From IMG/VR virus record IMGVR_UViG_3300044681_000028, positions 1 through 29,734 of that record: a stretch of 29,734 bases of DNA. One strand, 5' to 3'. Under the pieces are notes generated by a model. The model was given only the letters and a program-made list of their open reading frames with translations, was not told where the DNA came from and ran no database searches. Positions 1 through 29,734 of the stretch are shown here, in pieces; position 1 is the first letter of the stretch; every line of letters starts with the position of its first letter. A program made the position numbers and the translations under genes. Source of the DNA: a virus.

Positions 1-1244
1 ACACCACCGACAGAACCTTTAAGTGCCGCCTGAGCGTCTTTGGTCTTGCTATCAACGCCAGCATCTTCCTGAGTTTGTACAACTTGCAGCCCTACTTTCT
101 CGCGGATTTCCGCTTCTGTCATTACCGAAGTTACGGTAGACTCGGAGAATTGTACGCTAATCGGCTCTGTGTCTTGAATGTATAGGCGATTTGATAAGCC
201 TTGAATCGAAGCAAGGTCGTTAAACACTCGTTCGATGAATTGCTGTCTTCCGTTTACGTAGGTGTTTTGGAACAACTCGAAGCTGTCAACCAATTGGTTT
301 CGGCTCGTGAAGATTCCGTCCTCTTTGATTCCGAATAAAGCTGGGTCGGTTACCGAATGACCAGCGTAGATTTCCCTTTGAACGGTCTTGTTTAGAATGT
401 CAAAACGCTTGTCGAAGTCGTTACCATTCAACTGCTGAATCTCTACTCCTCTGTCCCTTGAATCAGCAAAGTTCAGAACGATTGAATTTGCGTTGTCCGT
501 TCCCGTGAACTTGTCCTTTATCTGTCGCTCGATTTCTTCTTGTTCCTCAAGTGTAGGTTCGCCATTGTAGAAAGAAACAATTGTGCCGCCAACAAAGTTA
601 TTCTTGACCGCGTTGAGGTGGAAATTTGCAATCTCTACGTCTAACTCAATGTAACCCGTTGACCCAAGATAGGTCGGCAATGGGTAGTATTTGCAGTCAG
701 GCGAGTAACCTTTGACGTAAAGTAGCTGTTTGCCGCTTGGCTCTTTCCAGTTAAACGCATCAATCTCCTCAACAACTGGGTTGTGTTTCTTCCAATCTTC
801 GGAGTAATAGTATTTAGTACCATCCTCGTTTGAACGATAACGCGCGAAGTCAGCGTGATAAATAGCCGCTATCTTGTCGTTGAGTTGGTTATAAACGATT
901 TCTAACGCGAAGCCGTTGTATAACTCGTAATCAAGCGCAACCTTCTCAAGGATGTCGTTAAGGCTCTCGTATTGGTTAGGCTCGTTGATGAATTGCTGAA
1001 GCCTCGCAAGTCCCATCGTGTCCAGCCCCTCTTTATCAACAGCCCAGCCCTGACCGACAACGTAGTCTTTCTTGGAGTTGATAATGGCGTGATGCTTCGC
1101 GCTTCTGCGATAAAGGTTCAGAAGGTACTCAGGATAGCGGTTCTTATACTCGCCTTCGTCTCCGAATAGAATCCAATCCTTGCCTCTCGCCTCTTTGAAG
1201 GTCGGTACTTTATGCGCTCCGAAATTCAATATCTTAAGAGCCAT
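1..1244 (-). CDS. Phage portal protein, N-terminal 414 codons (continues at the other end of the window)
   Basis: The portal forms the dodecameric DNA gate of the head. Translation from ATG at 1244 gives 414 codons that run off the window at base 1. The protein has the usual portal course: an early segment with residues IINSKKDYVVGQGW, a middle with AGHSVTDPALFGIKEDG and a late segment ending DAQAALKGSVGG. The window ends share 8 bases (acaccacc); merging them joins this frame to 28910-29728 and completes the motif AALKGSVGGVTGI, which I recognise as conserved in Bacteroidota phage portals. The full protein would be 686 aa, longer than the usual 400-550, because of a C-terminal extension described in the other half. 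The ATG overlaps the end of the preceding gene by 11 nt. It lies downstream of the capsid gene, an unusual position for a portal. Confidence 0.93.
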   Translation of the reverse strand, partial: MALKILNFGAHKVPTFKEARGKDWILFGDEGEYKNRYPEYLLNLYRRSAKHHAIINSKKDYVVGQGWAVDKEGLDTMGLARLQQFINEPNQYESLNDILEKVALDYELYNGFALEIVYNQLNDKIAAIYHADFARYRSNEDGTKYYYSEDWKKHNPVVEEIDAFNWKEPSGKQLLYVKGYSPDCKYYPLPTYLGSTGYIELDVEIANFHLNAVKNNFVGGTIVSFYNGEPTLEEQEEIERQIKDKFTGTDNANSIVLNFADSRDRGVEIQQLNGNDFDKRFDILNKTVQREIYAGHSVTDPALFGIKEDGIFTSRNQLVDSFELFQNTYVNGRQQFIERVFNDLASIQGLSNRLYIQDTEPISVQFSESTVTSVMTEAEIREKVGLQVVQTQEDAGVDSKTKDAQAALKGSVGG

Positions 1245-4405: not shown

Positions 4406-4966
4406 CTATGCTCTGAGTGCTTTTTCCACCTCTTCGATTATCATCTTGTCTACGTCCATTTGGCGGCTTTCGCTGAACACTCCCTCAACGCTGAACCCTC
4501 TCCACGTTCCTTTCTTAATATCCTCCCAAACCTCATCGTTATCGACTTTGTAACTCACAAACCATGACCCGTTCGGCAGCTTGTCGAATCCCTTTGGCGT
4601 TGGCTTCATCTCGTCAATCAAGAAGGACTCAAACATAAACACGCCTTCTACATCTGTTGAGTGGTCTAAGTTGGTCGCGTTGGTCTTGCCTTCCTTCATA
4701 AACTTGTAGGCTATCTTTCTAATAGCATCCGAGTCAAAGACTACGTAATACTCGCGCCCATCCTCGTCCCTTCGGTATATTGGATAGTCGGCAACCATTG
4801 CCGCTCCGCTTACGATTCTCTTCTCTTCGTTTAGCGCGAACTTGTGCTGCTTATTGAACGCCATCCAATTACGCTCTATGGCTGGATGGTCAACGAGTGA
4901 AATAGCATCGAGACCCGTTTCGTGGTCTTCGTCAATTGTTAGATAGATTACTGGTAGCTTGTTCAT
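4406..4966 (-). CDS. Prohead protease, XkdF-like serine protease
   Basis: A 186-aa protein that starts with the family-typical YLTIDEDHETGLDAISLVDHPAI. A His in NLDHS (about residue 100) and a Ser in TWRGFSVEG (about residue 160) are the likely catalytic pair of the prohead protease fold seen in XkdF/S78-type phage proteases. Such proteases cleave scaffold and capsid arms during prohead maturation. The ATG overlaps the tape measure stop (ATGA) and the next gene is the scaffold, which fits. The catalytic assignment is from pattern only. Confidence 0.85.
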   Translation of the reverse strand: MNKLPVIYLTIDEDHETGLDAISLVDHPAIERNWMAFNKQHKFALNEEKRIVSGAAMVADYPIYRRDEDGREYYVVFDSDAIRKIAYKFMKEGKTNATNLDHSTDVEGVFMFESFLIDEMKPTPKGFDKLPNGSWFVSYKVDNDEVWEDIKKGTWRGFSVEGVFSESRQMDVDKMIIEEVEKALRA

Positions 4967-6693
4967 CCTCCGAATGTTGCTTGTGATTCTATTTGGTTTA
5001 TGTTATTCTGGTTGCCCGTTACTTCTGTCTCCACGACATAGGCTTGAATAGGTGCGAGTTGGGCTTGTTCAACTCCTCCGAGTTCGGTTGTTCCCGCAGT
5101 CGCTTGTTGGATAGCTGGAGCAGTTGCCACTTGTGGAGCGGTTGGCGTTGCCGCACTTCCGCCCGGTACATTGGCAGAGTTTAATGTTGAAACTGCCGAA
5201 GCAATACCAGCAACAACTGCCGCGACCCCCGTAGCTATTGCCACAAGGTTGCCCGGATAAGGTACGCTCTGCGCCTGAGCAATAGCCCCGACTATCGCCT
5301 TTGCTGTGTCGATAGCTATTTGAGCAATGGCTAACGTCTTTTGTAGAACAACCGCCTCGCGAGATTGGCTGCCACTTGCCTCAACGAGTTGATTAATAGA
5401 GTTTAGAACTCCGCCCGTAGCCGTAAGATAGGATTCTTGAAGTTTGACCTTTGCGTCCCTCAGTTCCTTCTCCTTCTTTAAATCCTCATCTCTGAACTTC
5501 TTTCGTAGTTTGGCAAGTGCTTCTTGCTTTGCCCCTTCTATATCTGTCTCTGTGTCCCCAGCTAACCGTGCCATCTCCTCAAGTGACGCGTAATGTTGTT
5601 CGAGTTCAAGGAGTTCGAGTTCTCGTTGTTCCTTTCCAACCTTTGCTAATTCTTGTTGGATGTCGAATAACTCTTTTTCGAGAGCAGCTTGGTTAGTCAT
5701 CTGCTCGGACTTCTGCCCATTTATACGCTCATCCAAATCTGCTAACTCCCCCTTAGCTTGTGCAACAGCAGCCTGTGCCTCTACTGATGTTTTGTTTATT
5801 GCGAGTTCAGCATTGGCAAGGTCTAACTTTCTTTGAAAGATAACCCTTTCCGATTCGCTTTGTTCTTCGAGTATTTTGCCGAGTTTTTCGTTGGCTTCGA
5901 TACGTTCTGCAAGCGTCTTTCTGACATCATCACGAATCTGCCTTTGGTCTTCTGCCTCTTTCTGATAGGTCATCTGAACCAACTTCTGCTGTGCCTCGAG
6001 TTTTATCAGTTCGTTGCGTAGGTTGATAATAGCGTCCGCTTGATTGTATGCCTCTTTGGTTGTTTCGGCAAACGACTTTACGCCTTCTTTGAATGAATCA
6101 ACAACACCCGTTACAGCTTCCTTTGCTTCTTCATATTTCACACCGAGTTCTCCTACACCTTCCGCAACCTCCGCCCAATCGAATGTAAGCACCCCCTCTA
6201 TTATTTTACCAGCACTTCCAGCAATCTCACCCAAGTACTGAACAACAGGAATCGCTCTGTTTTTAACTCCATCTACGAAGTCTGCTATGGCTTGCTTTGG
6301 GTTGTTGAAAGCATCATATAACGCTTCGCCCAAAGGTGCTGCAAGGTCAATCAACTTACGCATGACAATTTCAACGGTAAGCATGACCTTACCGAATCCA
6401 TCTGCAACAGATTGGTTTGAAAGAAATATATCTTTCAGCTTATTAAAAGCCGCCACAATAACCGCAACTACCCCAAGCGATTTGACCAACGAGCCTATCC
6501 CGTTACCAAGAGATTTGATTCCTTTTCCCGCGTTCTTTGCTCCTTTTTCTGCCGCCTCGAAACCAGCCTTGAACTGGTCTCCCATCTCCTTCTGCGTAGC
6601 CTTTACCTTTTCGAGTTCCTCACGTAACGAGATTATCTCATCGCTGGCTTCGCCCGTTTTTACGTCTACCTCTATTGCAACCTTTGTAGCCAT
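4963..6693 (-). CDS. Tail tape measure protein
   Basis: A 576-aa protein with the hallmarks of a tape measure: long helical coiled-coil stretches rich in Lys/Glu/Ala (about 225-430), a hydrophobic segment at about 68-83 (LVKSLGVVAVIVAAF) and another near 475-500 (NLVAIATGVAAVVAGIASAV), and a low-complexity Ala/Thr/Pro/Gln tail. At 576 residues, and assuming the usual 1.5 angstrom per residue, the tail would be short, about 85 nm. The N-terminal start (VAIEVDVKTGEASDEI) is typical of Bacteroidota tape measures. It lies after the fibre gene and before the head protease; in most siphoviruses the tape measure precedes the distal tail genes, so the order is rearranged here. Confidence 0.85.
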   Translation of the reverse strand: MATKVAIEVDVKTGEASDEIISLREELEKVKATQKEMGDQFKAGFEAAEKGAKNAGKGIKSLGNGIGSLVKSLGVVAVIVAAFNKLKDIFLSNQSVADGFGKVMLTVEIVMRKLIDLAAPLGEALYDAFNNPKQAIADFVDGVKNRAIPVVQYLGEIAGSAGKIIEGVLTFDWAEVAEGVGELGVKYEEAKEAVTGVVDSFKEGVKSFAETTKEAYNQADAIINLRNELIKLEAQQKLVQMTYQKEAEDQRQIRDDVRKTLAERIEANEKLGKILEEQSESERVIFQRKLDLANAELAINKTSVEAQAAVAQAKGELADLDERINGQKSEQMTNQAALEKELFDIQQELAKVGKEQRELELLELEQHYASLEEMARLAGDTETDIEGAKQEALAKLRKKFRDEDLKKEKELRDAKVKLQESYLTATGGVLNSINQLVEASGSQSREAVVLQKTLAIAQIAIDTAKAIVGAIAQAQSVPYPGNLVAIATGVAAVVAGIASAVSTLNSANVPGGSAATPTAPQVATAPAIQQATAGTTELGGVEQAQLAPIQAYVVETEVTGNQNNINQIESQATFGG

Positions 6694-7268
6694 TAAGCTG
6701 GGATAAGTCTGTAGTTAACGTAAACTGTAATGTCGGAATCTCCAGCCGTTGGGTTTCCGCCAGCAACATACACATGAAGGTCTGAGTTTGTAAGCAATTG
6801 CGTGTCCGATGCCAAAGAAGCGGTTGATTGCTCCCCCACCCTATGGCTTGTCGTTGTAGCATTTAGACAGGCATTTATTCTATATTGAACAGAACTTGCA
6901 CCGCTACATATTAGACTAACAGTTGTATTGGTTGCGTATGCTGCGCTGTTGAAGTCAATCTTAACACTTGCAGAAACGACCTCAATAGCGTAACCAGCAA
7001 CCGCACCGACAATAGTGATAGGTGTTGAGTTCAGCGTTAGAACGTCTGCGCTTGCAATGGTCAAAGAAGCAGAGCCGCCCAAACAAGTAACCCCGTTGTC
7101 GTCCCGTGACCAAAGAACGCCATCGGCTTGATTAAAGAATAGTTCCCCTTTGTATATGTCCGTAGCTATCCAAGTGCCGTCCGTGTGGTCATTTGAACTT
7201 GGTACTGTTGGAACGGTTGCCGTTATGGTTGACCTTTTAATTTTAATTCGTGAGTCTTGTGTTGCCAT
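6693..7268 (-). CDS. Short tail fibre or receptor-contact protein
   Basis: A 191-aa protein. Its N-terminus IKIKRSTITATVPTVPSS, followed by KGELFFNQADGVLWSRDDNG, is the attachment module found at the start of many phage fibres and tropism determinants. The rest is beta-rich and ends in a compact region (STASLASDTQL, VYVAGGNPTAGDSDITVYVN) resembling a trimeric head domain. The ATG at 7268 overlaps the stop of the large Tal-like gene (TAATG) and lies 24 nt after a candidate late promoter. A role in host contact is inferred from the N-terminal module and position. Confidence 0.75.
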   Translation of the reverse strand: MATQDSRIKIKRSTITATVPTVPSSNDHTDGTWIATDIYKGELFFNQADGVLWSRDDNGVTCLGGSASLTIASADVLTLNSTPITIVGAVAGYAIEVVSASVKIDFNSAAYATNTTVSLICSGASSVQYRINACLNATTTSHRVGEQSTASLASDTQLLTNSDLHVYVAGGNPTAGDSDITVYVNYRLIPA

Positions 7269-10111
7269 TATTGTTCGCCTCCTTCTATTGTATAAATAGC
7301 TATTTCGCTAAATTGTGTCTGTACGATGTCCTCGCCACCGTCAACCGTGAAGATGTTAGTGCCTCCATTCAATGCCCGGACCTCATTCAATCCACCTTCC
7401 AACACCTCCACGTTGTCCTGTTCCTTGCCGTTGATGTAGGTAGTGTTTGACTGGGTAACAATTACACCATTGGTATTGATGAGTTGGACGTTGTGAAGCC
7501 CTCCAATTACCTCATTGTCATTGCCGAATATGGTAATGTTCTTCGAGCCTTCGCCTATTGTGTTTCGGCTTCCTACCACTTTGAAAGCTGTAACGCTCTG
7601 CCCTACGTTATTGTCCGCTCCGCTCACCTTTCCTTGAAACGGAGGATACTTGTTTCCGTTTGTTTTTATTTCGGTGGAAGGAGATGGCATCTTTTCCTTA
7701 CCTAAATAACCCCCAGCGTTCAAACTTCGGCTTCCCTTTTTGAAGGTAACAGCCTCCTTAATCTTGATGAGTTCCACCTTCGTTAACCCCTCTTTGAACG
7801 GGTTGTAATTCATTACTTTGTTGAGCCTCCAATAGCTGTTATCTATTACTATTTGGTCGCGGAAATCTAAGGTGTTGATGTCGGTCGGTTCAAGGTAGAA
7901 CATCGCAGTCATTACCTTCGAGTCCTTATCCGTTACCTCGTTTATGTAATTGCGGTGGTAGATGTTGTAAAGGTTCGCGTTCGTTACTTGGAGCGTTCCC
8001 GTGTATCCATTCGCTTGGTAATAGAGTTCGTAAGGTAGCCCGAAGTTGATGTCGATGGTTGGCGTTATTGGCTCGTCCCAATGTCCAGCGTATGGATAAG
8101 TTGAGTTGTAAGTGTCTTGTAGGTTTATTGTTCTTCGATGTACCCAAGTCGGGTCGCTTGGTATTAGACCGCCATAGTAAAGAATCCGAATATTTGCGTC
8201 CGTTGGCTTTGCTCCTTCTTCAATGTCAGCGTCCCAAATTGCTGGGATAATTCGATTCGATGGGTTGTCATTGACTAATGGCGAAGGGGAAAAAACAACC
8301 TCTACCTCTTTGGAACTCTGCACAAAGTCGTTATCTACCTCTATCCGCGAACGTCCATAAGCGTGTCCTCTGTTTGACTGATAACGCTCGTTATAATAGT
8401 CCCCATCCTCCGAATATGTGTAGATGTATTCCCTATCGGTAAGAACTCCCAACGGTTCAAGGGTAATGTCTCTGTCCCTTGCCAGCTTGTACGTCCAGTC
8501 CTTTATCCCCCCCTGAGAGTAGAATGTGTCGCGGGTTTCAATGAGCAGATTCTTCTCGTTGTTCGGGTCTACCTCAACGTAAAGATTGAACATTTTAAAT
8601 AAAGACGTTAAGAACTCGCTCATTTCAACATCGGGCAAGTTATCCGTCATGTCCACAAACTCGCCTTCGGTAATTCCTTCGTTCAAGTATTCATTGTAGA
8701 ACTCACCGCCCACAATGTCGAAGTCAAGATAATAGGGGATATTAGGCGGTGTCACATTACCCGTGTCGGGATGAAACAGAATGAAATAGTTAGTGTAACC
8801 GATTCCCGGTTCGTCAGCTATCAAATCAACATAATACTCATCGCCCTCTAACGCTTGTACGTTTGTAGCCGTTATGACGTATGTATTCTGCACCACGTTT
8901 TGAGAAAGGAACGGTGGTGTTGTATAGCCAGACGTTAGTCCAAGTGTAAATCCCCAGTCCGTTTCTGCCATTACTTCCACCGAGTTGTTGCGTTTTCTCA
9001 TTATCCTCAGCTTTCCTGAGAATTGATTTCGTCCTGACTCTCCAGTTTGCGCTCTGAGTATTGCAATAGAACCCCATTCTGTACACCTAAGGTCAACCGA
9101 TGCAGTTAGGTCGTAGAATCCAGTCGCTTCACTATCCACAAGCCATTTGTAATTTTGAGAAGCTGGAGAGAAAGGGTCTGACGGAACTAAGTAGTTTCCA
9201 GTTACAGACTGTCCATTGTCGAAGAATGGAGTAACTTCATTTGAATAACAAACTCTTGGCGTTGAATTTGGATTCACCCAAAAGCCCTGATTCCCAACTA
9301 CGATAGCTGGGTTGGTTGTTGCATTTATAATGGCATTTTGAGTAACCGTTTTCCCTACTCTGTACAATTTCTCTTGTAGGTTGTCCTCTGAAATTGTCAA
9401 AGGCTTAGTTACTGGGACAATCAATCTATTGAATAGAACTGAGTCAAAGAATGAACTCTGATAAGTGAACCCCGCAAAGTCGAAAATCTTGTTGAGTATC
9501 GTCTTAGCGTAGTAAGCGGGTCGCAAATCTCCGACCTCATAAATTCTATTTCCTTGATTTGTGAACTCCGCACCTCCGCCCCAATCAATTAACGGGTAAA
9601 CGTAACCGTCTCCGACTGGTGCGCTCCAGCTATCGACTTGGTTTTGATAGGTGTAATAGTGGTCAAACTCTGAGAAGTCTAAGTAATTGACATTGCTCTC
9701 ATCCACTCCGCTAAGTTCCTTGTCTCCAAGAACCGAGAAGATGTTGAGCAACTTACCGATAAATACCACCTCGTAGGTGTAGGCGTGTCCCTTTTGGACA
9801 ATCTTCCGAAGTTGGACAACCCCAGCCATTACCTCCACCCCGTCAGCTATTACTCGCGCCTCCGCTTTCTTATTAGGGTTGAAATTAACGCTAATGTTAG
9901 TAGTGTTAGCATCGTAGTTGTTTGAGATGTTAACGTCGTATATATGCCCGAAGAGTTCATCGTTGTTCTTCGTTGCCGGGCATTTGATGGTCTTGGAGTA
10001 TTCCGTGCTTCTCTTCTCAGGGTTACGGATGTCAGCAATGCCGTAGTTGAAGGAGAAATCGAACCCCTCGAATACGTCTAAACGTCTGCCCTCTATTCTA
10101 ACTTCAACCAC
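7268..10111 (-). CDS. Large tail tip protein (Tal-like) with C-terminal beta-solenoid
   Basis: A 947-aa protein, the largest gene. The N-terminal 450 residues (beginning VEVRIEGRRLDVFEGFDFSFNY) look like a tail-hub/Tal domain as seen after Dit-like proteins in Bacteroidota phages. Residues about 450-780 continue the baseplate-type region. The C-terminal 150 residues are Asn/Gly/Val-rich short repeats (VVGSRNTIGEGSKNI, IFGNDNEVIGGLHNV), a left-handed beta-solenoid pattern like trimeric adhesin heads. Start is GTG at 10111, overlapping the previous stop. The last 20 codons contain a candidate late promoter for the next gene. The likely role is tail tip hub plus host surface contact. Confidence 0.8.
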   Translation of the reverse strand: MVEVRIEGRRLDVFEGFDFSFNYGIADIRNPEKRSTEYSKTIKCPATKNNDELFGHIYDVNISNNYDANTTNISVNFNPNKKAEARVIADGVEVMAGVVQLRKIVQKGHAYTYEVVFIGKLLNIFSVLGDKELSGVDESNVNYLDFSEFDHYYTYQNQVDSWSAPVGDGYVYPLIDWGGGAEFTNQGNRIYEVGDLRPAYYAKTILNKIFDFAGFTYQSSFFDSVLFNRLIVPVTKPLTISEDNLQEKLYRVGKTVTQNAIINATTNPAIVVGNQGFWVNPNSTPRVCYSNEVTPFFDNGQSVTGNYLVPSDPFSPASQNYKWLVDSEATGFYDLTASVDLRCTEWGSIAILRAQTGESGRNQFSGKLRIMRKRNNSVEVMAETDWGFTLGLTSGYTTPPFLSQNVVQNTYVITATNVQALEGDEYYVDLIADEPGIGYTNYFILFHPDTGNVTPPNIPYYLDFDIVGGEFYNEYLNEGITEGEFVDMTDNLPDVEMSEFLTSLFKMFNLYVEVDPNNEKNLLIETRDTFYSQGGIKDWTYKLARDRDITLEPLGVLTDREYIYTYSEDGDYYNERYQSNRGHAYGRSRIEVDNDFVQSSKEVEVVFSPSPLVNDNPSNRIIPAIWDADIEEGAKPTDANIRILYYGGLIPSDPTWVHRRTINLQDTYNSTYPYAGHWDEPITPTIDINFGLPYELYYQANGYTGTLQVTNANLYNIYHRNYINEVTDKDSKVMTAMFYLEPTDINTLDFRDQIVIDNSYWRLNKVMNYNPFKEGLTKVELIKIKEAVTFKKGSRSLNAGGYLGKEKMPSPSTEIKTNGNKYPPFQGKVSGADNNVGQSVTAFKVVGSRNTIGEGSKNITIFGNDNEVIGGLHNVQLINTNGVIVTQSNTTYINGKEQDNVEVLEGGLNEVRALNGGTNIFTVDGGEDIVQTQFSEIAIYTIEGGEQ
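7293..7320 (-). promoter_or_regulatory. Candidate phage late promoter (copy C), inside the 3' end of the tail tip gene
   Basis: Minus strand: AGACACAA, 8 nt, AATAGC TATTTA; its first box is the AGACAC variant shared with the copy at 13022-13049. It overlaps the last codons of the 947-aa gene and precedes the fibre ATG at 7268 by 24 nt. This is the weakest match in its TTTTGC part, but the spacing and TATTTA are intact. Confidence 0.45.
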
Positions 10112-11393: not shown

Positions 11394-11926
11394 TACTTGG
11401 TTTCGATTAGTTTCTTGATTTCTTCAAATGTGAGTTCGATGTCTTCAGCAATTGCCGCCTCAACAACTCCCGCTATTTTAGGTGTTACCTTGTCAAAGGC
11501 TGGTTGAATCCAGTTCTTACCCCTTGTTGGATAATTCAGTTTCTTATAGACAATCCACTCAGCCCACTTGGTTTTTTTCTTGTCTGTCCATTGCTTGTCA
11601 TCCCCTCCAAGTCTCGCCAATACGTTAGGGTATGTCAACCACTTTTTAATATCTCCAACAGATGGCGCATCTTCTCCAGCAGCCCGACCTTCGTCAAGGC
11701 TGATTCCGTAGTCTGCCATTCTTATTTGCAGCTTGTATATCTGCCCGAATAGCCTGACTTTCGGTTGTGCGTCAAGTGATAATGTTGTCAATAGGTTTCC
11801 AGATGCAACGTAACCCTGACCTTCGCCAGTTCCTAAAGTTGAGCCGCCTTGTAACGAATCGGCTAACGCTTTGGTGTACTCGCCCCTAAACTCATTCAGA
11901 GCATCTATCAGTTTATCGAACGCCAT
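11393..11926 (-). CDS. Tail completion / HK97 gp10-like neck protein
   Basis: A 177-aa protein with the organisation of HK97 gp10-type tail completion proteins of Bacteroidota phages: N-terminal helix (MAFDKLIDALNEFRGEY), a beta-hairpin region with LFGQIYKLQIRMADYG, then the signature DEGRAAGEDAPSVGDIKKWL, and a C-terminal helix. The ATG at 11926 lies inside the final codons of the frameshifted chaperone extension. Its stop overlaps the Dit-like start. It probably helps join or finish the tail. Confidence 0.75.
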   Translation of the reverse strand: MAFDKLIDALNEFRGEYTKALADSLQGGSTLGTGEGQGYVASGNLLTTLSLDAQPKVRLFGQIYKLQIRMADYGISLDEGRAAGEDAPSVGDIKKWLTYPNVLARLGGDDKQWTDKKKTKWAEWIVYKKLNYPTRGKNWIQPAFDKVTPKIAGVVEAAIAEDIELTFEEIKKLIETK

Positions 11927-12182
11927 TCTGTTTCATTTGGTGGTACTCGTGATTTTGTTTGGCTTTCTGAAAGGATATAAGGTTGAGGAACTCCCGTAAT
12001 GGTAACGCGAAGAAGTAACCCCACTTGGTTGCATCGTTATTTGATAGGTTATTAACCACGTTCAGCCAGCCGTATTTCGATTCAAACGTTTCAACCTTCG
12101 CTCCGCTTGTCTCTTGATTTTCTCCGCTTTCCTCACCGAAGATTCCAGTATATGTTTGGCGGACATCAGATAACTGCTTAAA
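11913..12182 (-). CDS. -1 frame extension of the tail assembly chaperone (probable programmed frameshift product)
   Basis: No separate start is needed. At a run of nine T on the mRNA strand (12180-12188) the 206-aa frame can slip -1; the shifted frame then stays open for 89 codons to TAA at 11913. The peptide begins FKQLSDVRQTYTGIFGEE and contains KYGWLNVVNNLSNNDATKW and ALPLREFLNLISFQKAKQN, which match the small YGW/LSF-type protein found in this position in Bacteroidota phages. The fusion would be 167 + 89 = 256 aa. This parallels lambda gpG/gpGT and fits the location just before the tail structural genes. Transcriptional slippage at the T9 tract is the alternative mechanism. Confidence 0.78.
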   Translation of the reverse strand, partial: FKQLSDVRQTYTGIFGEESGENQETSGAKVETFESKYGWLNVVNNLSNNDATKWGYFFALPLREFLNLISFQKAKQNHEYHQMKQNGVR

Positions 12183-12682
12183 AAAAAAGCCGACAACGGT
12201 TGTACTATTGTCATTGGTGCTTGAAGCATTGCCTCCGAAACTTCCTTGTGTTTCTCAGGGTCGTACTTACCTTTTTTCCATCCGTACCAAGTTTTCTTCT
12301 TCGGCACTAAGAACACCGCCATCACTTCGTGTAGCTGGTCGATAACTTTGTCTGGGTCTTTCATCAAGTGCATCAGCGTAATGTACTGACCTCCGTTCAA
12401 GTTGTAAACGTCTGTTATAACATCGTATTTCTGACCTCCAAATTCCACTACCTTCTGTACCTCTCCGACAAGTTGCTCGGTAAGGAAAGAAAGCGTCTGC
12501 ATGCACTTAGCGTATGTCTTTAGTGAGTAGGTTTCAATCTCGTCAACTGGAACGCCTGACATTATCGAAATGATAGCCACGTTGGTCGGGTACTCTTCCC
12601 CCTTCTCTGCGAGGATTCTTTGAATTGCTTGGAACTGCTCAACGGTTACGCCCGCCCAGCTATTTGGTAGTTCAATCTTCAT
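12062..12682 (-). CDS. Tail assembly chaperone (G-like), 206 aa zero-frame product
   Basis: A mostly helical protein opening with IELPNSWAGVTVEQFQAIQ, a pattern common in Bacteroidota phage proteins before the tail genes, with a second helical block around residues 90-130. Residues 165-168 (AFFL) are encoded over nine consecutive T, where a -1 shift leads into an 89-codon extension. The zero-frame tail after the shift site is very basic (KAEKIKRQAERRLKRLNRN). By analogy with lambda G/T it would assist polymerisation of the tube around the tape measure. The ATG at 12682 overlaps the preceding gene by 11 nt. Confidence 0.75.
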   Translation of the reverse strand: MKIELPNSWAGVTVEQFQAIQRILAEKGEEYPTNVAIISIMSGVPVDEIETYSLKTYAKCMQTLSFLTEQLVGEVQKVVEFGGQKYDVITDVYNLNGGQYITLMHLMKDPDKVIDQLHEVMAVFLVPKKKTWYGWKKGKYDPEKHKEVSEAMLQAPMTIVQPLSAFFLSSYLMSAKHILESSVRKAEKIKRQAERRLKRLNRNTAG

Positions 12683-13139: not shown

Positions 13140-14324
13140 CTACCGTATTGTGTACTTTCCAGCGTTCGCCTTCAGCTTCTCCATTGCCACGTAGCGGAGC
13201 GCATCGAGTGCGTGGTTGTTGTCATCTTCGGGTTGGTTCGTTACTTGGTTGGTCTTGTAGTCCCGTTTCCATGCGTAGTTCCTCAGTTCTCGGATGATGT
13301 TAACCGAGTCTTGGTGTACCATTATTTGAACGCTCTTTAGCTTATCGATGCCTGACCTTACGCTGTCCTGACCTTTGGCAACTGGTCGGATTCTGAAGCC
13401 AGCCCTTCGGATTTCTTCGATGCTCTTGGGCTCTGCTGAATCGGCTATGATTTCGTCCGACCTTTGTAGCCCGCACTTCCTTGCAATGTCTGCGTTCGTT
13501 AACCCTGTTTCGTAAAGCACTTCACGAACCCATAATTTACCTTCTTGATAGAGTACCTCCACGAGTGCAGTCGGGTCGTTCGTAAACCCGAAGTCGAGTC
13601 CGTATGCTTTCCACTTGTACCCGGTCGGAAACTCTTTGGTTTCTTGCCAGTTCTCGTATATCGCGCCTTCTCTTCTTGACCTTTGCCCAAGTCCGTAAAC
13701 CTTCCACTTGTATTCGTCAGCCGTGCCTCGTGATACGTTAAAAGGTGTCGGCTCGTAGCTGTTTATCTTGTCGCGGATGTGCTGGTCGAGGAAGGTGTTG
13801 TCCAGCATCGTGGAATGTATAAGCACCACATCATCCCGTTTCAGAACGTTGTCGTATATCCAATGCTCGTCTGTGGAAGGGTTGTAGTCGAGAATCCACT
13901 TGCCTTTGCATCGCTGCTCTAATTGGTCGAAATCATCCTTGCTTGTTTCAATGGCTTCATTCAACCAAAAGTAATCTGTTTCGATACCGTGAAGCTTCTG
14001 AGAATCGTCAAGCCCGTAGAACTCAAACGTAGACCCGTGAGCAGAGTAAATTAAATCAGTCTTGTTAAACGCCTCATCCTCCCAAACCTCAAGGCTCTGG
14101 AGTACTTTCTTGAACGTGTCGAGTACCGTTGGTTTAATCCACGTCCTCCTAAACCTCGCAATTGCGATTCTCTTCGGTTCTTGTAATCCTGTAAGGTAGA
14201 TGGCTTGACAGATGCTCCACGTTTTCGAGGAACGGCTTCCACCCTCAAGCACAATTCCCCGAATGGATTTATCATTAAGGGCTTGCCACAGGTCATCAAA
14301 TACGCCAGTTCCTTCAATTTTCAC
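13140..14324 (-). CDS. Terminase large subunit
   Basis: The packaging motor and nuclease, 394 aa. The ATPase half shows a Walker A variant GGSRSSKT (28-35) and Walker B YFWLNE (118-123). The RNase H-like nuclease half shows acidic residues in YGLDFG (D244), IIADSAEPKS (D295) and DDNNHALDALRY (368-374). It belongs to the PBSX/Terminase_3 type. Start is GTG at 14324, overlapping the stop of the preceding small gene (GTGA). The circular assembly with no defined end fits a headful packaging enzyme. It follows the small terminase candidate with one small gene between. Confidence 0.95.
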   Translation of the reverse strand: MKIEGTGVFDDLWQALNDKSIRGIVLEGGSRSSKTWSICQAIYLTGLQEPKRIAIARFRRTWIKPTVLDTFKKVLQSLEVWEDEAFNKTDLIYSAHGSTFEFYGLDDSQKLHGIETDYFWLNEAIETSKDDFDQLEQRCKGKWILDYNPSTDEHWIYDNVLKRDDVVLIHSTMLDNTFLDQHIRDKINSYEPTPFNVSRGTADEYKWKVYGLGQRSRREGAIYENWQETKEFPTGYKWKAYGLDFGFTNDPTALVEVLYQEGKLWVREVLYETGLTNADIARKCGLQRSDEIIADSAEPKSIEEIRRAGFRIRPVAKGQDSVRSGIDKLKSVQIMVHQDSVNIIRELRNYAWKRDYKTNQVTNQPEDDNNHALDALRYVAMEKLKANAGKYTIR

Positions 14325-14506: not shown

Positions 14507-14904
14507 TTCTTCTCAGGTCGATGTATTACTATCTCTACCTTGTCAGGCTTGCCTCCGTTAACCGTCTGCTCAACCTCTTCTTTCGGCTTGCCGTAGACCC
14601 TATCGAACAGAACGTCCAATATGTGGATGCTTCCTTTCTCGTAGTCTCGTTGGGCTTTCTTCGCAATAAGAGCAATCCAAAACGGCAACTGGTCGTTCTT
14701 TGCCAACTCCACCAACTCGCTTCTTGACTTGCCGAGTACGTTCTTGATGATGTCCTGAACCTGACCCTTCGACAGCTTGACATTATGCTCATCAAGGAAG
14801 TGTTCCTTTAGTAGCGTTTCCACGTTTTTCGGTCTCCCTTTCGGGTTGCCGCTCTGTCCTTTCTTGAAGGGTTTTAGGTTCTCAGGTGTTCCGCCTTCGT
14901 TCAT
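14503..14904 (-). CDS. Terminase small subunit candidate (DUF5681-like)
   Basis: A 133-aa protein. The N-terminal motif FKKGQSGNPKGRPK is the signature of a family found immediately before large terminase genes, assigned as a DNA-recognising small subunit. Residues 25-130 are helical with a basic middle. The ATG at 14904 overlaps the stop of the methyltransferase gene. Its position one small gene upstream of the large subunit supports the assignment. Confidence 0.75.
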   Translation of the reverse strand: MNEGGTPENLKPFKKGQSGNPKGRPKNVETLLKEHFLDEHNVKLSKGQVQDIIKNVLGKSRSELVELAKNDQLPFWIALIAKKAQRDYEKGSIHILDVLFDRVYGKPKEEVEQTVNGGKPDKVEIVIHRPEKK

Positions 14905-16388
14905 TGTTCAATCGCTGTTTTAACGTACTCTTTTCCGTTTATCTTAACGCTCAAAGTCGGGTCGAGTTTCGTCATTCTGTCGATAATTACTTGGCAGTAT
15001 TTAGGGTCAAGTTCCATGCCATAGCATTTGCGTTTCAGTTGATGGGCGGCTACCATTGTTGAGCCTGAGCCTAAGAAGAAGTCTACCGTTAAGCCATCTT
15101 CGGGACAACTGCTTTTAATTGCCCGTTCGCATAGTGGTATGGGCTTTGGTGTTGCGTGTCCTCCTTCAGTTCCGTTTTTAACGTGTCGGCTAAAATGCCA
15201 AACGTTATTCATATTGTCGTGCGTGTTGTCAAAGTACGCTCGGGTTGAATAGTATTCTTTTTTTAACGCATCGTATTCTTTTTTTAACGCATCGTATTCT
15301 TTGTGAAACGCATCGCCCTTTGCTTCGTTTCTCATTGAATTATAGTGCTCTCGTGTTGGAAAATGCCACTGACTTGTTGTAAAGTAATGCGAAGCAGATG
15401 TTTTTCCTGTAATTTCTATAACCTTCTTGACGTTCCACCCAAGCTTATTTTTTTGCGTATTTAAATATTCTCTTATTGGTTCAAACCCTTCAAAATAATT
15501 GTGTGAATTATTGTTAAAACCTTGAACCCCGAGCATAATAAAAAGGCATTTTTCATCAGCCGTTGCGTAACTTCTTGTATTGTCTGAATTTTGGCTTTGC
15601 CCGTGTCCCTTGTCCCAAGTTATCAAATTTCTGAATGTTGCTTTTTCGTTCTTTATGTAAGGCTTCAGAACTCCGCTATAAATATCCATCAAAGGTTCAT
15701 CAATACCCCAGCAATACCAACTACCGTTTTCCTTCAAATGAGTAAACTGCAAGGCTATCCACTCTTTATTGAACTCCAGTAAATCCGCATAGTTTAGATT
15801 GTCATTAAGTACCCCCTCGCTTTCTTTTTTCATTCCGTAGGGCGGGTCATTGTGGGCGAGGTCAGCCTTCTCTCCATTCATCAGCTTTGCCACTTGGTCA
15901 GAGTCCGTTGAATCTCCACAAAGCAAACGGTGTTCTCCTATCTCGATAAGGTCGCCAAGAACAACGTCTGTCTTTAGTTCTTCGGGCACTTCGTAATCGT
16001 CCTCTTCTGCTTCCAGTTCTTCTGCTTTCCAATTATCAGGAGTGTCAAGCCCCCACTCGTTCAGTTCTTCAGCATCCCAAGTATTCGCCAGTTCGTCCCA
16101 GTCCCATTCCCCGAATCCTACGTTGTCTTTGATGATGAACTCGCGCTGTTTCTCCTCTGACCAATCAACAACCTCTACGGGTACTTCTGACCATCCAGCT
16201 TCTTGCATTGCCTTGAGCCGCATATTGCCGCCCAAGACTATCATCTCTGTGTTAACGACTATCGGTCTGACGTTAGCCATCTCAGGAAAGTCCCGAAGGC
16301 TCTGAACCAGCTTCTTAAACTTCTCGTCTTTGATGTATCTCGGGTTCTCCGAGTTTGGTCTAACCTTGCTTATTGCTATTGTTTCCAT
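14901..16388 (-). CDS. ParB-like domain fused to N6-adenine/N4-cytosine DNA methyltransferase
   Basis: A 495-aa protein. Residues 1-115 are a ParB/Srx-like domain (IAISKVRPNSENPRYI, GGNMRLKAM at 53-61). The methyltransferase domain follows: motif IV is DPPY (180-183) and motif I is FLGSGSTM (437-444) near the C-terminus, the order of the beta class. Residues 361-377 include a duplicated YDALKKE heptad encoded by 21-bp repeats. This fusion is common near phage terminases and probably protects phage DNA from restriction; the ParB part may target it. ATG at 16388 overlaps the preceding small gene. Confidence 0.9.
   Translation of the reverse strand: METIAISKVRPNSENPRYIKDEKFKKLVQSLRDFPEMANVRPIVVNTEMIVLGGNMRLKAMQEAGWSEVPVEVVDWSEEKQREFIIKDNVGFGEWDWDELANTWDAEELNEWGLDTPDNWKAEELEAEEDDYEVPEELKTDVVLGDLIEIGEHRLLCGDSTDSDQVAKLMNGEKADLAHNDPPYGMKKESEGVLNDNLNYADLLEFNKEWIALQFTHLKENGSWYCWGIDEPLMDIYSGVLKPYIKNEKATFRNLITWDKGHGQSQNSDNTRSYATADEKCLFIMLGVQGFNNNSHNYFEGFEPIREYLNTQKNKLGWNVKKVIEITGKTSASHYFTTSQWHFPTREHYNSMRNEAKGDAFHKEYDALKKEYDALKKEYYSTRAYFDNTHDNMNNVWHFSRHVKNGTEGGHATPKPIPLCERAIKSSCPEDGLTVDFFLGSGSTMVAAHQLKRKCYGMELDPKYCQVIIDRMTKLDPTLSVKINGKEYVKTAIEQ
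15253..15315 (-). repeat. Three 21-bp tandem repeats inside the methyltransferase gene
   Basis: The units 15253-15273 and 15274-15294 are identical (plus strand tattctttttttaacgcatcg); the third, 15295-15315, differs in three bases. They encode the YDALKKE repeat in a probable helical insertion. Each complete unit carries a run of seven T, so the copy number is likely to vary between isolates. Confidence 0.85.
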
Positions 16389-23524: not shown

Positions 23525-23716
23525 CTATCCGTTTAGTTCTTCAAATGTCAATTCATTGAAACCCGTAATAGCCTTGTGGTAATGTATTTTACTGAAATCC
23601 ATATCCCCCCAAATTTCAGCCTCTTCAACTTTGTCAGTTACATTGATGCTATTACTTAAAGAGGGAGCGATATAAATCGGTGAACCAAATTCGCGTGTTA
23701 CCATTACCATTTTCAT
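23525..23716 (-). CDS. First gene after early promoter P2, small protein
   Basis: A 63-aa protein with MVMVTREFGSPIYIAPSL and a C-terminus ending GFNELTFEELNG. Its first position in the operon hints at an immediate-early role. The ATG has a leader nearly identical to that of the P1 first gene. No family recognised. Confidence 0.62.
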   Translation of the reverse strand: MKMVMVTREFGSPIYIAPSLSNSINVTDKVEEAEIWGDMDFSKIHYHKAITGFNELTFEELNG

Positions 23717-26582: not shown

Positions 26583-27632
26583 TTAAACGGCTCCTCCGTC
26601 TGTTATTGTCCAACCAAATGTTGAAATAAGTGATGCTCTTGCCGCATCTGCCGCTCCACCGCCAGTATATGTGCTGGTCCAGAAACTAACAGTTGGTGAA
26701 TATGGGTAACCTACTCCACCTGGATACGCTGCCTGTAAAGAGGCTTCCCACGCTATAAGTGTGGCGTCATAATTAGCTGTTGATAATGTGCCGCCTAGGA
26801 ACATAAAGTTCCCAGCGTCAGTAATCTTTGAAACATCCCAACCGTCAAGAGCCTGATTAAAGGCTGTGGCATAGGACAGCATGCCATTTATATTCGTTAG
26901 GGCTGTGGTAGCCCATCCTCCGATGTTCTGATTAAACGAGGCGGCTTGGCTAAACATTCCACTCATGTTTGTAACACTTGAAACGCCCCAATTGTCCAAG
27001 GGTTGATTGAATGCCGATGCTGATCTGAACATCCCTGCATTTATGCCTCCCATTAAGGTAACATTGGAGACATCCCAGTTGTTTATACTGTCGCTTCCCC
27101 CGTTGTTAAATATGGAACATAGGTAAAACATAAGTTGCATGTTAGTCACCGCGCTAACATCCCAATGGCCTATGTCTGAGTTCATCAAACTGCATGCAGT
27201 GAACATCCTATTCAATGAAGTAGATGTTATGGTTGGTGCATCGGTAGCTGTAATGGTCATGTTCGAGCAACCATCAAAAGCCCTATCGTTAACTACATTG
27301 AATGTACCCCAATTTGAGATATCTGTTATCTTCAATCGATCTCCAGCATAGGCAAATTGCCACCCCTCAATTGTTCCAGAGATAGTAATGGTGTACGTTC
27401 CACTTGATGCGTAAACGTGTGTCCTATTTGCATAACTTAAAGCGTCAGAATTACCATCTCCCCAATCAATCGTGCCTGAGTACGTGCCTCCTGACAATAA
27501 AGGAAGGACTACCGTATTGGAAGCAGAACCTGCCTTTGTCGTATCCCAAGTTGAAACGAAGTCAAGATTGACAGGAGGTGCGCCTCCGCCTCCGCGATAT
27601 GCGGCAACACATATTTGGCTAACGCCTATCAT
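26583..27632 (-). CDS. BspA/DUF285-repeat surface-binding protein, probable receptor-binding or adhesin
   Basis: A 349-aa protein. Residues about 20-110 resemble a PKD/beta-sandwich module (SGTIDWGDGNSDAL, THVYASSGTYTITISG). Residues 115-290 are DUF285/BspA-type repeats of about 25 aa with the recurring pattern W-D-V-S-x-V-T-N-M-x-x-M-F (HWDVSAVTNMQLMF, NWGVSSVTNMSGMF). BspA repeats mediate surface contact in Bacteroidota. It shows a different word composition: two of three GATC, and the only GGCC, lie here. This indicates recent acquisition or exchange. Position between structural and lysis genes fits a tail-decorating binding protein. Confidence 0.85.
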   Translation of the reverse strand: MIGVSQICVAAYRGGGGAPPVNLDFVSTWDTTKAGSASNTVVLPLLSGGTYSGTIDWGDGNSDALSYANRTHVYASSGTYTITISGTIEGWQFAYAGDRLKITDISNWGTFNVVNDRAFDGCSNMTITATDAPTITSTSLNRMFTACSLMNSDIGHWDVSAVTNMQLMFYLCSIFNNGGSDSINNWDVSNVTLMGGINAGMFRSASAFNQPLDNWGVSSVTNMSGMFSQAASFNQNIGGWATTALTNINGMLSYATAFNQALDGWDVSKITDAGNFMFLGGTLSTANYDATLIAWEASLQAAYPGGVGYPYSPTVSFWTSTYTGGGAADAARASLISTFGWTITDGGAV

Positions 27633-28349: not shown

Positions 28350-28910
28350 TTACTTGCGTTTGTACTCATATTTGTCCTCTAAGCTGATGAACTTCGGTCT
28401 GCGCCCCAAGAACATTCCTGTCGTGTAGGTTCGTGTATCGGGTTGGATTGTATCAAGACCATCGTCAGGGTTAGCGTAGCTTGGGTAGTCTGTTTCGTTC
28501 TCAAGAAGGAAACGAACGAGCCTCTCGGTGTACCACTCCGCCTTATCCTTGTAACGCTTGGATATGAAGTTGATTTCGTCAAGTGAAGCGTTGGAACTGT
28601 TCTCAGAACTCTGCTGGTGTAGCCCCTTGTTCAGAAACTTGTAGCTTATCGCAGTCGGTGCTTCGCTTTGAACCCAATGAAGTAACGCTGGCTGGATGTA
28701 ATCCTCCAAAAGAGTAGTATTCGCAGCCGTTAACGTGGAGTTGGTTATCTGCGTTTTGAGTTCGTTGTATAAAGTAGTGCCAATCTTGTGCTGGATGTGG
28801 ATGTCTTGGCACATCAACACGACTGGTCGCAAGTACTTGAAGTCGATATTCTCGTGGAGCAAAGTGTTGTCCTTCAAGAATGTTTCCGATATGAATAAGA
28901 CGTTAGCCAT
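28350..28910 (-). CDS. Head-tail connector, DUF6712-like
   Basis: A 186-aa protein. It begins ANVLFISETFLKDNTLLHEN and continues with CQDIHIQHKIGTTLYNELKT, the recognisable opening of the DUF6712 family of Bacteroidota phage neck proteins. Helical throughout, with basic C-terminus (SLEDKYEYKRK). ATG at 28910 overlaps the portal stop (TAATG). It probably docks on the portal as the adaptor of the neck. Confidence 0.85.
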   Translation of the reverse strand: MANVLFISETFLKDNTLLHENIDFKYLRPVVLMCQDIHIQHKIGTTLYNELKTQITNSTLTAANTTLLEDYIQPALLHWVQSEAPTAISYKFLNKGLHQQSSENSSNASLDEINFISKRYKDKAEWYTERLVRFLLENETDYPSYANPDDGLDTIQPDTRTYTTGMFLGRRPKFISLEDKYEYKRK

Positions 28911-29734
28911 TACTTCTTAATTCTCATAAGTTTCTGCTCCCAATAGTGGCGGCAATGGTAGGATTTGCCCCAAAAGCCACCGCCTCGCATCCATACATTT
29001 CTGTTTTGGCTTACTCCGATGTTTTGAATCTCGGTCAACTTCCAACTCTTACCAGCTTCTGTTTCCGTTACGAGTTCGCGGCAGAATTGTCGGGTAGTTG
29101 GAATTATAGCCGCACCACTTGCTTCGGGTCGTTTAGAGTAAACGTAACGAATTACAAACTCCTCTTCGACTGGTGGTATCTCCTCAAGCAACCGTTCGCC
29201 TTCTTTGGTTACTTCCACTACTCGTTGCGTTGAGTCAAGTACATTGTCGACAGCTATCTTAATTGCATTGGCTTCGTTGAGTGCTTGCAGTCCAGCCATT
29301 ACCCTCTCAATTGAAAGTTGTAGCTGCTCGGCTATTGCCAAGAATGGAGTGGATGGATTCTCCTTAAGGATGTTCAGAATAGCCGTATCTAACGGGTCTA
29401 TCTCTGCAAACCAATACTTTCGGTTCAGTTCCTCGTGAAGTCTTGCGGAGGTTTCGCTTTCAAAGTTTAACGCCTTGCCGTTTCCGACTGGTTCGTAGTC
29501 CGTAGAGCCGCAGTTCTTGAAGTACTCAACAAGAATAGCATCCTCGTCTTGCTTCTCAAATACCGCCCGCATCTCTGCCGCCACGTTCTCAGGTATAACC
29601 TCGCCCGTAATAGTAGCCCTTGCAATCTCAGGGCTGAATCCGTACAACTCAACCAATACAGCGATAGCCGAGTTCTCAGCGATAAGACCCTCTTTGACTT
29701 GCTGAAGTAACGTAATGATTCCCGTAACACCACC
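28910..29734 (-). CDS. Phage portal protein, C-terminal part with embedded winged-helix domain and CRH-type end
   Basis: The frame is open to the window end at 29734 and continues into 1-1244 once the 8-bp overlap is removed (total 686 aa). After the conserved VTGIITLLQQVKEG and FSPEIARATITGE, residues about 525-596 of the whole protein read as a winged helix: DPLDTAILNILKENPSTPFL, AIAEQLQLSIERVMAGLQAL, and VTKEGERLLEE. The last 65 residues (TTRQFCRELV, WMRGGGFWGKSYHCRHYWEQ) match the Cys/His ending typical of Bacteroidota phage portal and minor-head proteins. A TTG-started shorter product is not needed. The wHTH may bind packaged DNA or simply be an extra head domain. Confidence 0.9.
   Translation of the reverse strand, partial: GGVTGIITLLQQVKEGLIAENSAIAVLVELYGFSPEIARATITGEVIPENVAAEMRAVFEKQDEDAILVEYFKNCGSTDYEPVGNGKALNFESETSARLHEELNRKYWFAEIDPLDTAILNILKENPSTPFLAIAEQLQLSIERVMAGLQALNEANAIKIAVDNVLDSTQRVVEVTKEGERLLEEIPPVEEEFVIRYVYSKRPEASGAAIIPTTRQFCRELVTETEAGKSWKLTEIQNIGVSQNRNVWMRGGGFWGKSYHCRHYWEQKLMRIKK

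What the first reader, a model, noticed from the sequence alone, without database searches (positions are those of the whole stretch)
11913..12188. Probable -1 frameshift at a T9 run making a long tail chaperone
Nine T at 12188-12180 within the 206-aa frame allow -1 slippage. The shifted frame is open for 89 codons to 11913 and encodes KYGWLNVVNNLSNNDATKW and LNLISFQKAKQN, a conserved YGW-type peptide with no start of its own. The arrangement equals lambda G/GT. The last codons overlap the next gene's ATG at 11926. Because the run is a homopolymer, transcriptional slippage is an alternative.
Basis: partly seen in the sequence, partly recalled or inferred. Interest (0 to 1): 0.7.

Follow-up and report, generated by a model that had tools for sequence, protein, structure and literature searches.

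The report
Nine-T frameshift in phage tail-chaperone gene
A phage gene carries a run of exactly nine T's at which the reading frame slips, so one gene probably makes two tail-building helper proteins with different ends; the same nine T's are kept in every related phage checked, including two grown in the laboratory.

Summary
The T9 run (12188-12180, minus strand), the 206-aa zero frame and a start-less -1 frame ending at 11913 are all present. It is not an error or chance. The run is exactly nine T's in 189 of 189 loci that span it (178, 10, one new one; 133 non-redundant), down to about 22% N-part identity. These include the cultured seawater phages P12024S and P12024L (host Persicivirga), reached by predicted fold rather than by the run. 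Both frames after the run are under constraint. In 118 of 119 testable loci the shifted frame has no ATG of its own before the YGW motif.

Best reading: programmed frameshifting gives a short chaperone ending in a zero-frame tail (basic helix in the window) and a long one ending in a YGW helical domain. Tail-chaperone identity is likely but rests on weak fold and profile matches plus tail-gene neighbours. No conserved RNA structure was found, and the run slid one base relative to the codons while staying nine T's. This leans to RNA-polymerase slippage over a ribosomal U UUU UUU slip, but does not settle it. Verdict: new variant of a known kind.

The parts
12062..12682 (-). Zero-frame ORF, 206 aa: common N-terminal domain (residues 1-165) plus a 41-aa zero-frame tail (short isoform)
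   Evidence: AlphaFold2 model mean pLDDT 81.6 with the tail as part of one long helix, residues 157-200
12180..12188 (-). T9 slip site; zero frame GCT TTT TTT TTA, -1 frame TTT TTT TTT AAG
   Evidence: exactly T9 in 189 of 189 loci that span it; zero Fitch changes at all nine positions in four groups
11913..12188 (-). -1 frame: 91 codons from the first T (linker plus YGW helical domain) and a stop; C-terminal part of the long isoform
   Evidence: conserved family; no ATG before the YGW motif in 118 of 119 testable loci
12062..12179 (-). Stretch after the run read in both frames: basic zero-frame tail and the linker/start of the -1 domain
   Evidence: codon-position diversity; zero-frame tail net charge about +7.4 against -1.1 for the -1 frame, group A means over the first 41 aa
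11393..11926 (-). Next gene, 177 aa; its ATG overlaps the last 14 nt of the -1 frame
   Evidence: homologue found at about +300 nt in 40 group A, 16 C and 10 A2 loci
13140..14324 (-). Terminase large subunit, upstream of the gene in all groups
   Evidence: PF04466 E 3.6e-22; found upstream of the run in 37 A, 11 A2, 49 B and 16 C loci and in P12024S
4963..6693 (-). Candidate tape-measure protein, 576 aa
   Evidence: BLASTP E 7e-14 to P12024S_49, which itself matches PHROG 58 'tail length tape measure protein' at E 2.2e-4
7268..10111 (-). Large tail protein between the chaperone and the tape-measure candidate (947 aa)
   Evidence: BLASTP E 2e-12 to P12024S_45; same PHROG 38559

Best explanation
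One gene of a tailed phage, probably of a marine or estuarine Bacteroidota host, makes two tail-assembly chaperone isoforms by programmed frameshifting at a run of nine T's. Normal decoding gives the 206-aa short form: a common domain that ends in a basic helix. A minority of events enter the -1 frame and give a form of about 256 aa with the same common domain, an acidic linker and the conserved YGW helical domain. By analogy with lambda, the common domain would coat the tape-measure protein and the YGW domain would recruit the tube protein. The slip most likely happens when RNA polymerase adds one U to the U9 stretch (about 55%), otherwise by a ribosomal -1 slip on U UUU UUU (about 40%). Shown here: the frames, the invariant T9, constraint on both frames, absence of an ATG and of a conserved RNA structure. 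Inferred: that both proteins are made, their ratio, the chaperone role, and the level of the slip.
For: Exactly T9 in 64 of 64 loci, 178 of 178, 10 of 10 near P12024S and 80 of 80 of a separate scan, 79 already seen. Several scans used patterns away from the run. In group A2 the invariant stretch is the nine T's alone, with both neighbours varying. The zero-frame third position inside the run has no change in any group, while only 12 of 160 (A), 8 of 159 (A2), 45 of 160 (C) and 3 of 160 (B) third positions of the N part are that constant. Both frames constrained: in group A overlap codons 4-38, third-position diversity of the -1 frame is 0.12-0.18 against 0.37 downstream, where only the -1 frame codes. 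No ATG start in 118 of 119. Phase slide with the length kept: GCT TTT TTT TTN and variants (72) against CTT TTT TTT TGC (52). No consensus RNA structure: alifold -7.5, -2.8, -2.3 and -0.6 kcal/mol over 110 nt, mean z -0.76 to +1.01. Chaperone: HK97 tail assembly chaperone 2OB9 is rank 1 in Foldseek PDB (E 1.1) and VIA-align (Z 3.6, rmsd 2.9, 61 residues); PF10109 Phage_TAC_7 weak hits in 6 of 11 and 5 of 16 members; tail genes downstream.
Against: No expression data. Fold and profile matches to known chaperones are weak: Foldseek E 1.1, PF10109 at best E 0.001, hhalign to a P2 gpE set prob 0.4%, no useful PDB sequence match. The gene is not directly upstream of the tape-measure candidate. U UUU UUU is present in the zero frame in every group, so the data do not exclude a ribosomal slip. 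The two extra T's are also constrained by the proteins. In the P12024S group an in-frame ATG precedes the KWSW/KWGW motif, so a separate product is possible there.
Confidence: 0.8

Rival explanations
1. Ribosomal -1 programmed frameshifting on U UUU UUU alone, as in other phage tail chaperones; the T9 length is a by-product of Phe/Leu codons in two frames.
For: A U UUU UUU heptamer sits in the zero frame in both phases. P2 gpE/E+E' uses GGT TTT TTG at its annotated -1 site. The tail-chaperone frameshifts in the review passages I read are ribosomal.
Against: No conserved downstream structure or upstream Shine-Dalgarno-like element seen. Total length stays exactly nine through a one-base slide against the codons.
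Confidence: 0.4
2. Sequencing or assembly error, or a decayed gene: the true run is T10 and the frames are one ORF.
For: Homopolymers are error-prone and the window is a metagenomic-type virus record. L029 does carry an upstream indel.
Against: T9 in 133 non-redundant sequences and no T10; T9 in isolate genomes P12024S and P12024L; zero-frame tail under constraint beyond the run.
Confidence: 0.01
3. The shifted frame is a separate gene with its own start, or made by reinitiation.
For: In P12024S the -1 frame holds an ATG at the zero-frame stop (TAATG), annotated as P12024S_39.
Against: 118 of 119 testable loci of the window's groups lack any ATG in that frame before the motif, and 51 of 119 lack ATG, GTG and TTG, the window among them. 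A separate start would not explain the invariant T9.
Confidence: 0.04
4. The frameshift is real but the protein is not a tail chaperone (for example a head-tail connector or packaging cofactor next to TerL).
For: It follows TerL and one small gene, not the major tail protein; matches to known chaperones are weak.
Against: HK97 chaperone is the top PDB fold in two programs; weak Phage_TAC_7 hits in several members; tail genes follow.
Confidence: 0.2

Closest known systems
Lambda gpG/gpGT tail assembly chaperones
   Same: Short product plus a minority -1 frame extension that shares its N-terminus; shifted frame without a start
   Different: Nine-T homopolymer with no conserved stimulator found; zero frame runs on 18-91 codons past the slip and is conserved itself; gene lies near TerL rather than directly before the tape measure. 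Lambda details are from passages of PMC5009743 and recall
P2 gpE/gpE+E' (Pfam PF10109, Phage_TAC_7)
   Same: -1 shift at a T-rich site (GGT TTT TTG) in a tail gene; weak PF10109 hits
   Different: P2 run is six T's; hhalign between the two sets gives no match
Transcriptional slippage at 9A/9T runs in bacterial genes and IS elements
   Same: Run length of nine, conserved shifted extension in homologues (Baranov 2005, PMC1088944, passages)
   Different: That paper's main text has no occurrence of the word phage; transcript heterogeneity not tested here
tssM of the type VI secretion system (Citrobacter rodentium)
   Same: Polymerase slippage makes two length variants of a part of a tail-like machine, both needed (PMC4256274, abstract and passages)
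   Different: Run of 11 A's, few species; here T9 across a whole phage lineage
Persicivirga (Nonlabens) phages P12024S and P12024L
   Same: Cultured homologue: TerL neighbour, T9, -1 extension; N part hhalign prob 93.7%
   Different: Zero tail 27 codons; in-frame ATG in the -1 frame; annotated as two separate hypothetical proteins

Membership tests
Tailed-phage tail assembly chaperone frameshift pair (lambda G/GT type) | Second frame in -1, overlapping the first, without its own start | tested here: met
Tailed-phage tail assembly chaperone frameshift pair (lambda G/GT type) | Conserved slippery site at the overlap | tested here: met
   T9 in 189 of 189 loci
Tailed-phage tail assembly chaperone frameshift pair (lambda G/GT type) | Position just upstream of the tape-measure gene | tested here: not met
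   Genes of 177, 429, 947 and 191 aa lie between it and the 576-aa candidate; same region of the genome only
Tailed-phage tail assembly chaperone frameshift pair (lambda G/GT type) | Fold or sequence kinship to a known chaperone | tested here: inconclusive
   2OB9 rank 1 but E 1.1 and Z 3.6
Tailed-phage tail assembly chaperone frameshift pair (lambda G/GT type) | Both products made in a set ratio and needed for tails | not testable with these tools
   needs infection experiments
PF10109 Phage_TAC_7 (P2 gpE) | Significant match of the window protein to the family model | tested here: not met
   Not listed for the window protein; best E among relatives 0.0014 in 6 of 11 and 0.001 in 5 of 16 members; hhalign to nine gpE proteins prob 0.4%
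Programmed transcriptional slippage | A or T run of at least nine, conserved, with conserved shifted frame | tested here: met
Programmed transcriptional slippage | mRNA population with varied run length | not testable with these tools
   no reads available
Canonical bacterial -1 ribosomal frameshifting | X XXY YYZ heptamer in the zero frame | tested here: met
   T TTT TTT in both phases
Canonical bacterial -1 ribosomal frameshifting | Stimulatory structure or upstream Shine-Dalgarno-like element | tested here: inconclusive
   None found; pseudoknots not searched, and poly-U heptamers may slip without them

The most novel reading that the evidence does not exclude
In a large lineage of mostly uncultivated phages the RNA polymerase, not the ribosome, sets the ratio of the two tail chaperones, by adding one U at an invariant U9; and the zero frame after the slip is a second conserved coding frame, so the gene makes two chaperones with alternative, dual-coded tails instead of a short form and its extension.
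Probability: 0.5. Interest if true: 0.75.

Novelty: new variant of a known kind. Interest (0 to 1): 0.6.

Why it matters
It predicts, from sequence alone, an unannotated protein in a whole phage lineage and in two isolates whose annotation misses the fusion. It offers a clean natural test of whether polymerase slippage can replace ribosomal frameshifting in the same job, with an exact run length held across a slide of reading phase. It also offers a stretch where two conserved protein tails share one DNA sequence.

Tried and rejected
Sequencing error or T10 gene: rejected, T9 in 133 non-redundant sequences and two isolates. Separate start: rejected for the window's groups (1 of 119 with an ATG, upstream of the run), open for the P12024S group. 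RNA stimulator: none found; single-sequence z-scores near zero and weak alifold energies. P2 gpE kinship: weak Pfam hits, but hhalign to nine gpE proteins gave nothing. Rfam and tRNA scans of the window: none. Named genomes: two genome-contig scans found no relative; tblastn of the window's two parts in the phage collection found none, L155's N part found none and its shifted part gave two weak Lactobacillus phage hits at E 0.5-0.7. The window's major-capsid candidate had no match in the phage collection. Flavobacterium phage 6H, a weaker fold match, has an overlapping -1 ORF, but the nearby run is T6 and lies upstream of a stop in that frame, so it is not the same arrangement. Bacteroides phages BC679P3 and BT50, chosen by TerL, showed no matching run with a -1 overlap. 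NCBIfam: nothing useful. The YGW-domain model was poor (pLDDT 65.7) and its best BFVD match was E 1.5e-2. The null (random synonymous codons) ignores relatedness and overstates zero-frame conservation; I rely instead. Conserved T8/T9 positions alone do not tell ribosome from polymerase, because both proteins constrain them.

Rows left out of counts: four loci end before the run (L182, L197, L315, L323) and L254 begins inside it. One search kept 80 of 92 relatives and one search kept 80 of 295, so the rest were not seen. One search was given the new loci, not their repeats of known contigs, and the loci were not examined apart from those that one search also gave. One search used 121 of 124 non-redundant loci (those with at least 300 nt after the run). 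One search used 117 of those 121 (N part long enough); there the shared T of the two parts is counted twice in the joined string. could not test 5 of 124 (truncated or no motif) and capped the upstream search for L029, which has an indel.

Full report
What is there. On the minus strand the 206-aa frame runs 12682-12062. It contains TTTTTTTTT at 12188-12180. The -1 frame is open from 12254 to 11913 and reads 91 codons from the first T. It ends 14 nt inside the next gene (11926-11393). The run is the only T9 in the record on either strand. In 500 synonymous-codon shuffles of the window's 40 listed CDSs, 21 gave a T run of nine or more in a sense strand.

Relatives. Scans of viral contigs with the shifted peptide, the zero-frame protein and profiles of each gave several groups. 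Group A holds the window; A2, C and B are progressively more distant. N parts of the window and group B are 21-28% identical. A last group, D, is around phage P12024S. The run is exactly nine T's in 64 of 64 loci of the first scan, 178 of 178 loci in the pooled set (124 non-redundant), 10 of 10 loci around P12024S (8 non-redundant), and 80 of 80 loci of the last profile scan, one of them new. That makes 189 loci and 133 non-redundant sequences. Several scans used patterns that do not touch the run. The base before the run was C in 121 and G in 3 of 124; after it G 66, A 33, C 25.

Cultured phages. A model of the zero-frame product (mean pLDDT 81.6) searched against predicted viral structures gave 39 matches with E up to 0.001. 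Among them was a protein of Nonlabens (Persicivirga) phage P12024S. I took its gene to be the 175-aa CDS that follows TerL directly, by length and position; it carries T9 at 23578-23586 and has a -1 frame open for 83 codons from the run. The second isolate, P12024L, is the same. Its N part matches the profile of our family with probability 93.7%, E 1.9e-7, and its -1 part with probability 66%, E 5.6e-5. PHROG 32199, the P12024S family, also matched 6 of 16 family members by sequence, best E 5.1e-5. The isolates make an assembly artefact untenable and point to a Flavobacteriia-type host (that placing of Persicivirga is recalled). The window's own host is inferred, not shown. Nearest cultured TerL proteins are from Bacteroides phages at about 39% identity.

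Dual coding. In group A the -1 frame's third codon position has diversity 0.12-0.18 in overlap codons 4-38 but 0.37 in codons 42-85, where only the -1 frame codes. Zero-frame third positions upstream are at 0.37-0.39. So both frames are constrained after the run. The zero-frame tail is 41 codons in most of A, 83-84 in A2, 91 in C, 38-48 in B and 18-27 in D. In group A it is strongly basic (about +7.4) while the -1 stretch is slightly acidic; in group B the zero tail is neutral on average, so the charge is not a family-wide trait. In the window model it is part of one long helix, residues 157-200.

Need for the run. On trees of each group, all nine T's show no change (A 38, A2 11, C 17, B 51 sequences), while Phe third positions elsewhere in the gene show 0 to 11 changes. 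In A2 the invariant stretch is the nine T's alone. Groups A, A2 and C read GCT TTT TTT TTN (or GGT, ACT, TCT for the first codon). Group B reads CTT TTT TTT TGC. The run thus slid one base relative to the codons while its length stayed nine.

Start codons. Between the upstream stop and the YGW-type motif, 118 of 119 testable loci of the window's groups have no ATG in the -1 frame, and 51 of 119 have no ATG, GTG or TTG; the window is among the 51. Five of 124 were truncated or lacked the motif. Group D differs: an in-frame ATG precedes the motif, and in P12024S it overlaps the zero-frame stop.

Level of the slip. No conserved structure follows the run: RNAalifold energies over 110 nt were -7.5, -2.8, -2.3 and -0.6 kcal/mol with negligible covariation, and mean z-scores of the downstream stretches ran from -0.76 to +1.01. 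No Shine-Dalgarno-like element is evident upstream in the consensus. Baranov et al. 2005 (PMC1088944, passages) place the length at which selection against A/T runs is evident at nine in many bacteria. The case of tssM, a tail-like machine, shows that such slippage can set a needed ratio (PMC4256274, abstract and passages). Against this, U UUU UUU is in frame in every group, and ribosomal frameshifting is the mechanism described for tail chaperones in the review passages I read (PMC5009743). I give polymerase slippage about 55% and the ribosome about 40%.

Identity. HK97 tail assembly chaperone 2OB9 ranks first among PDB folds in Foldseek (E 1.1) and in VIA-align (Z 3.6 over 61 residues, rmsd 2.9). 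Both are weak in absolute terms. PF10109 (Phage_TAC_7) gives weak hits in several members, but a profile comparison with nine P2-type gpE proteins failed. TerL lies upstream in 37 A, 11 A2, 49 B and 16 C loci and in P12024S. Downstream lie homologues of P12024S tail genes, including the 576-aa protein (E 7e-14 to P12024S_49), itself weakly matched to a tape-measure PHROG (E 2.2e-4). I put the chaperone role at about 75-80%.

Print. Searches for 'tail assembly chaperone' with 'transcriptional slippage' (4 papers), 'transcriptional slippage' with 'bacteriophage tail' (9), 'transcriptional frameshifting' with phage and tail (6) and tail assembly chaperone, frameshift, Flavobacteri (0) were made in an open-access library only. 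From the listings, and the passages read in five papers, I saw no report of polymerase slippage in a phage tail chaperone. I did not read the other listed papers.

Noticed in passing
window 1-8 and 29727-29734; ORFs 3-1244 and 28910-29734: The record's ends share an 8-base repeat, and with it the portal ORF reads on in frame across the ends, so the record is probably a complete circular or circularly permuted genome of about 29,726 bases.
   Followed up: partly
L413:10044-10361 (minus): Flavobacterium phage 6H has an unannotated 105-codon ORF in the -1 frame just after the gene that is a weaker fold match to the window protein; no T9 there, so it may use another recoding route or reinitiation.
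   Followed up: partly
L414:23579-23830: In P12024S the -1 extension is annotated only from an internal ATG (P12024S_39) that overlaps the zero-frame stop as TAATG; reinitiation could add a third product in this group.
   Followed up: partly
L029, about 40 codons before the run at 2366: This metagenome contig has an indel upstream of the run that puts the upstream part into the -1 frame; probably a sequencing error.
   Followed up: no
window 14901-16388: A 495-aa protein joins a ParB-like N-terminal region to a DNA methyltransferase (PHROG 498, E 1.7e-88).
   Followed up: no
window 26583-27632: 349-aa protein with repeated matches to large PHROGs of unknown function (phrog_22899, phrog_3649), possibly a repeat-type surface protein, near the lysis genes.
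   Followed up: no
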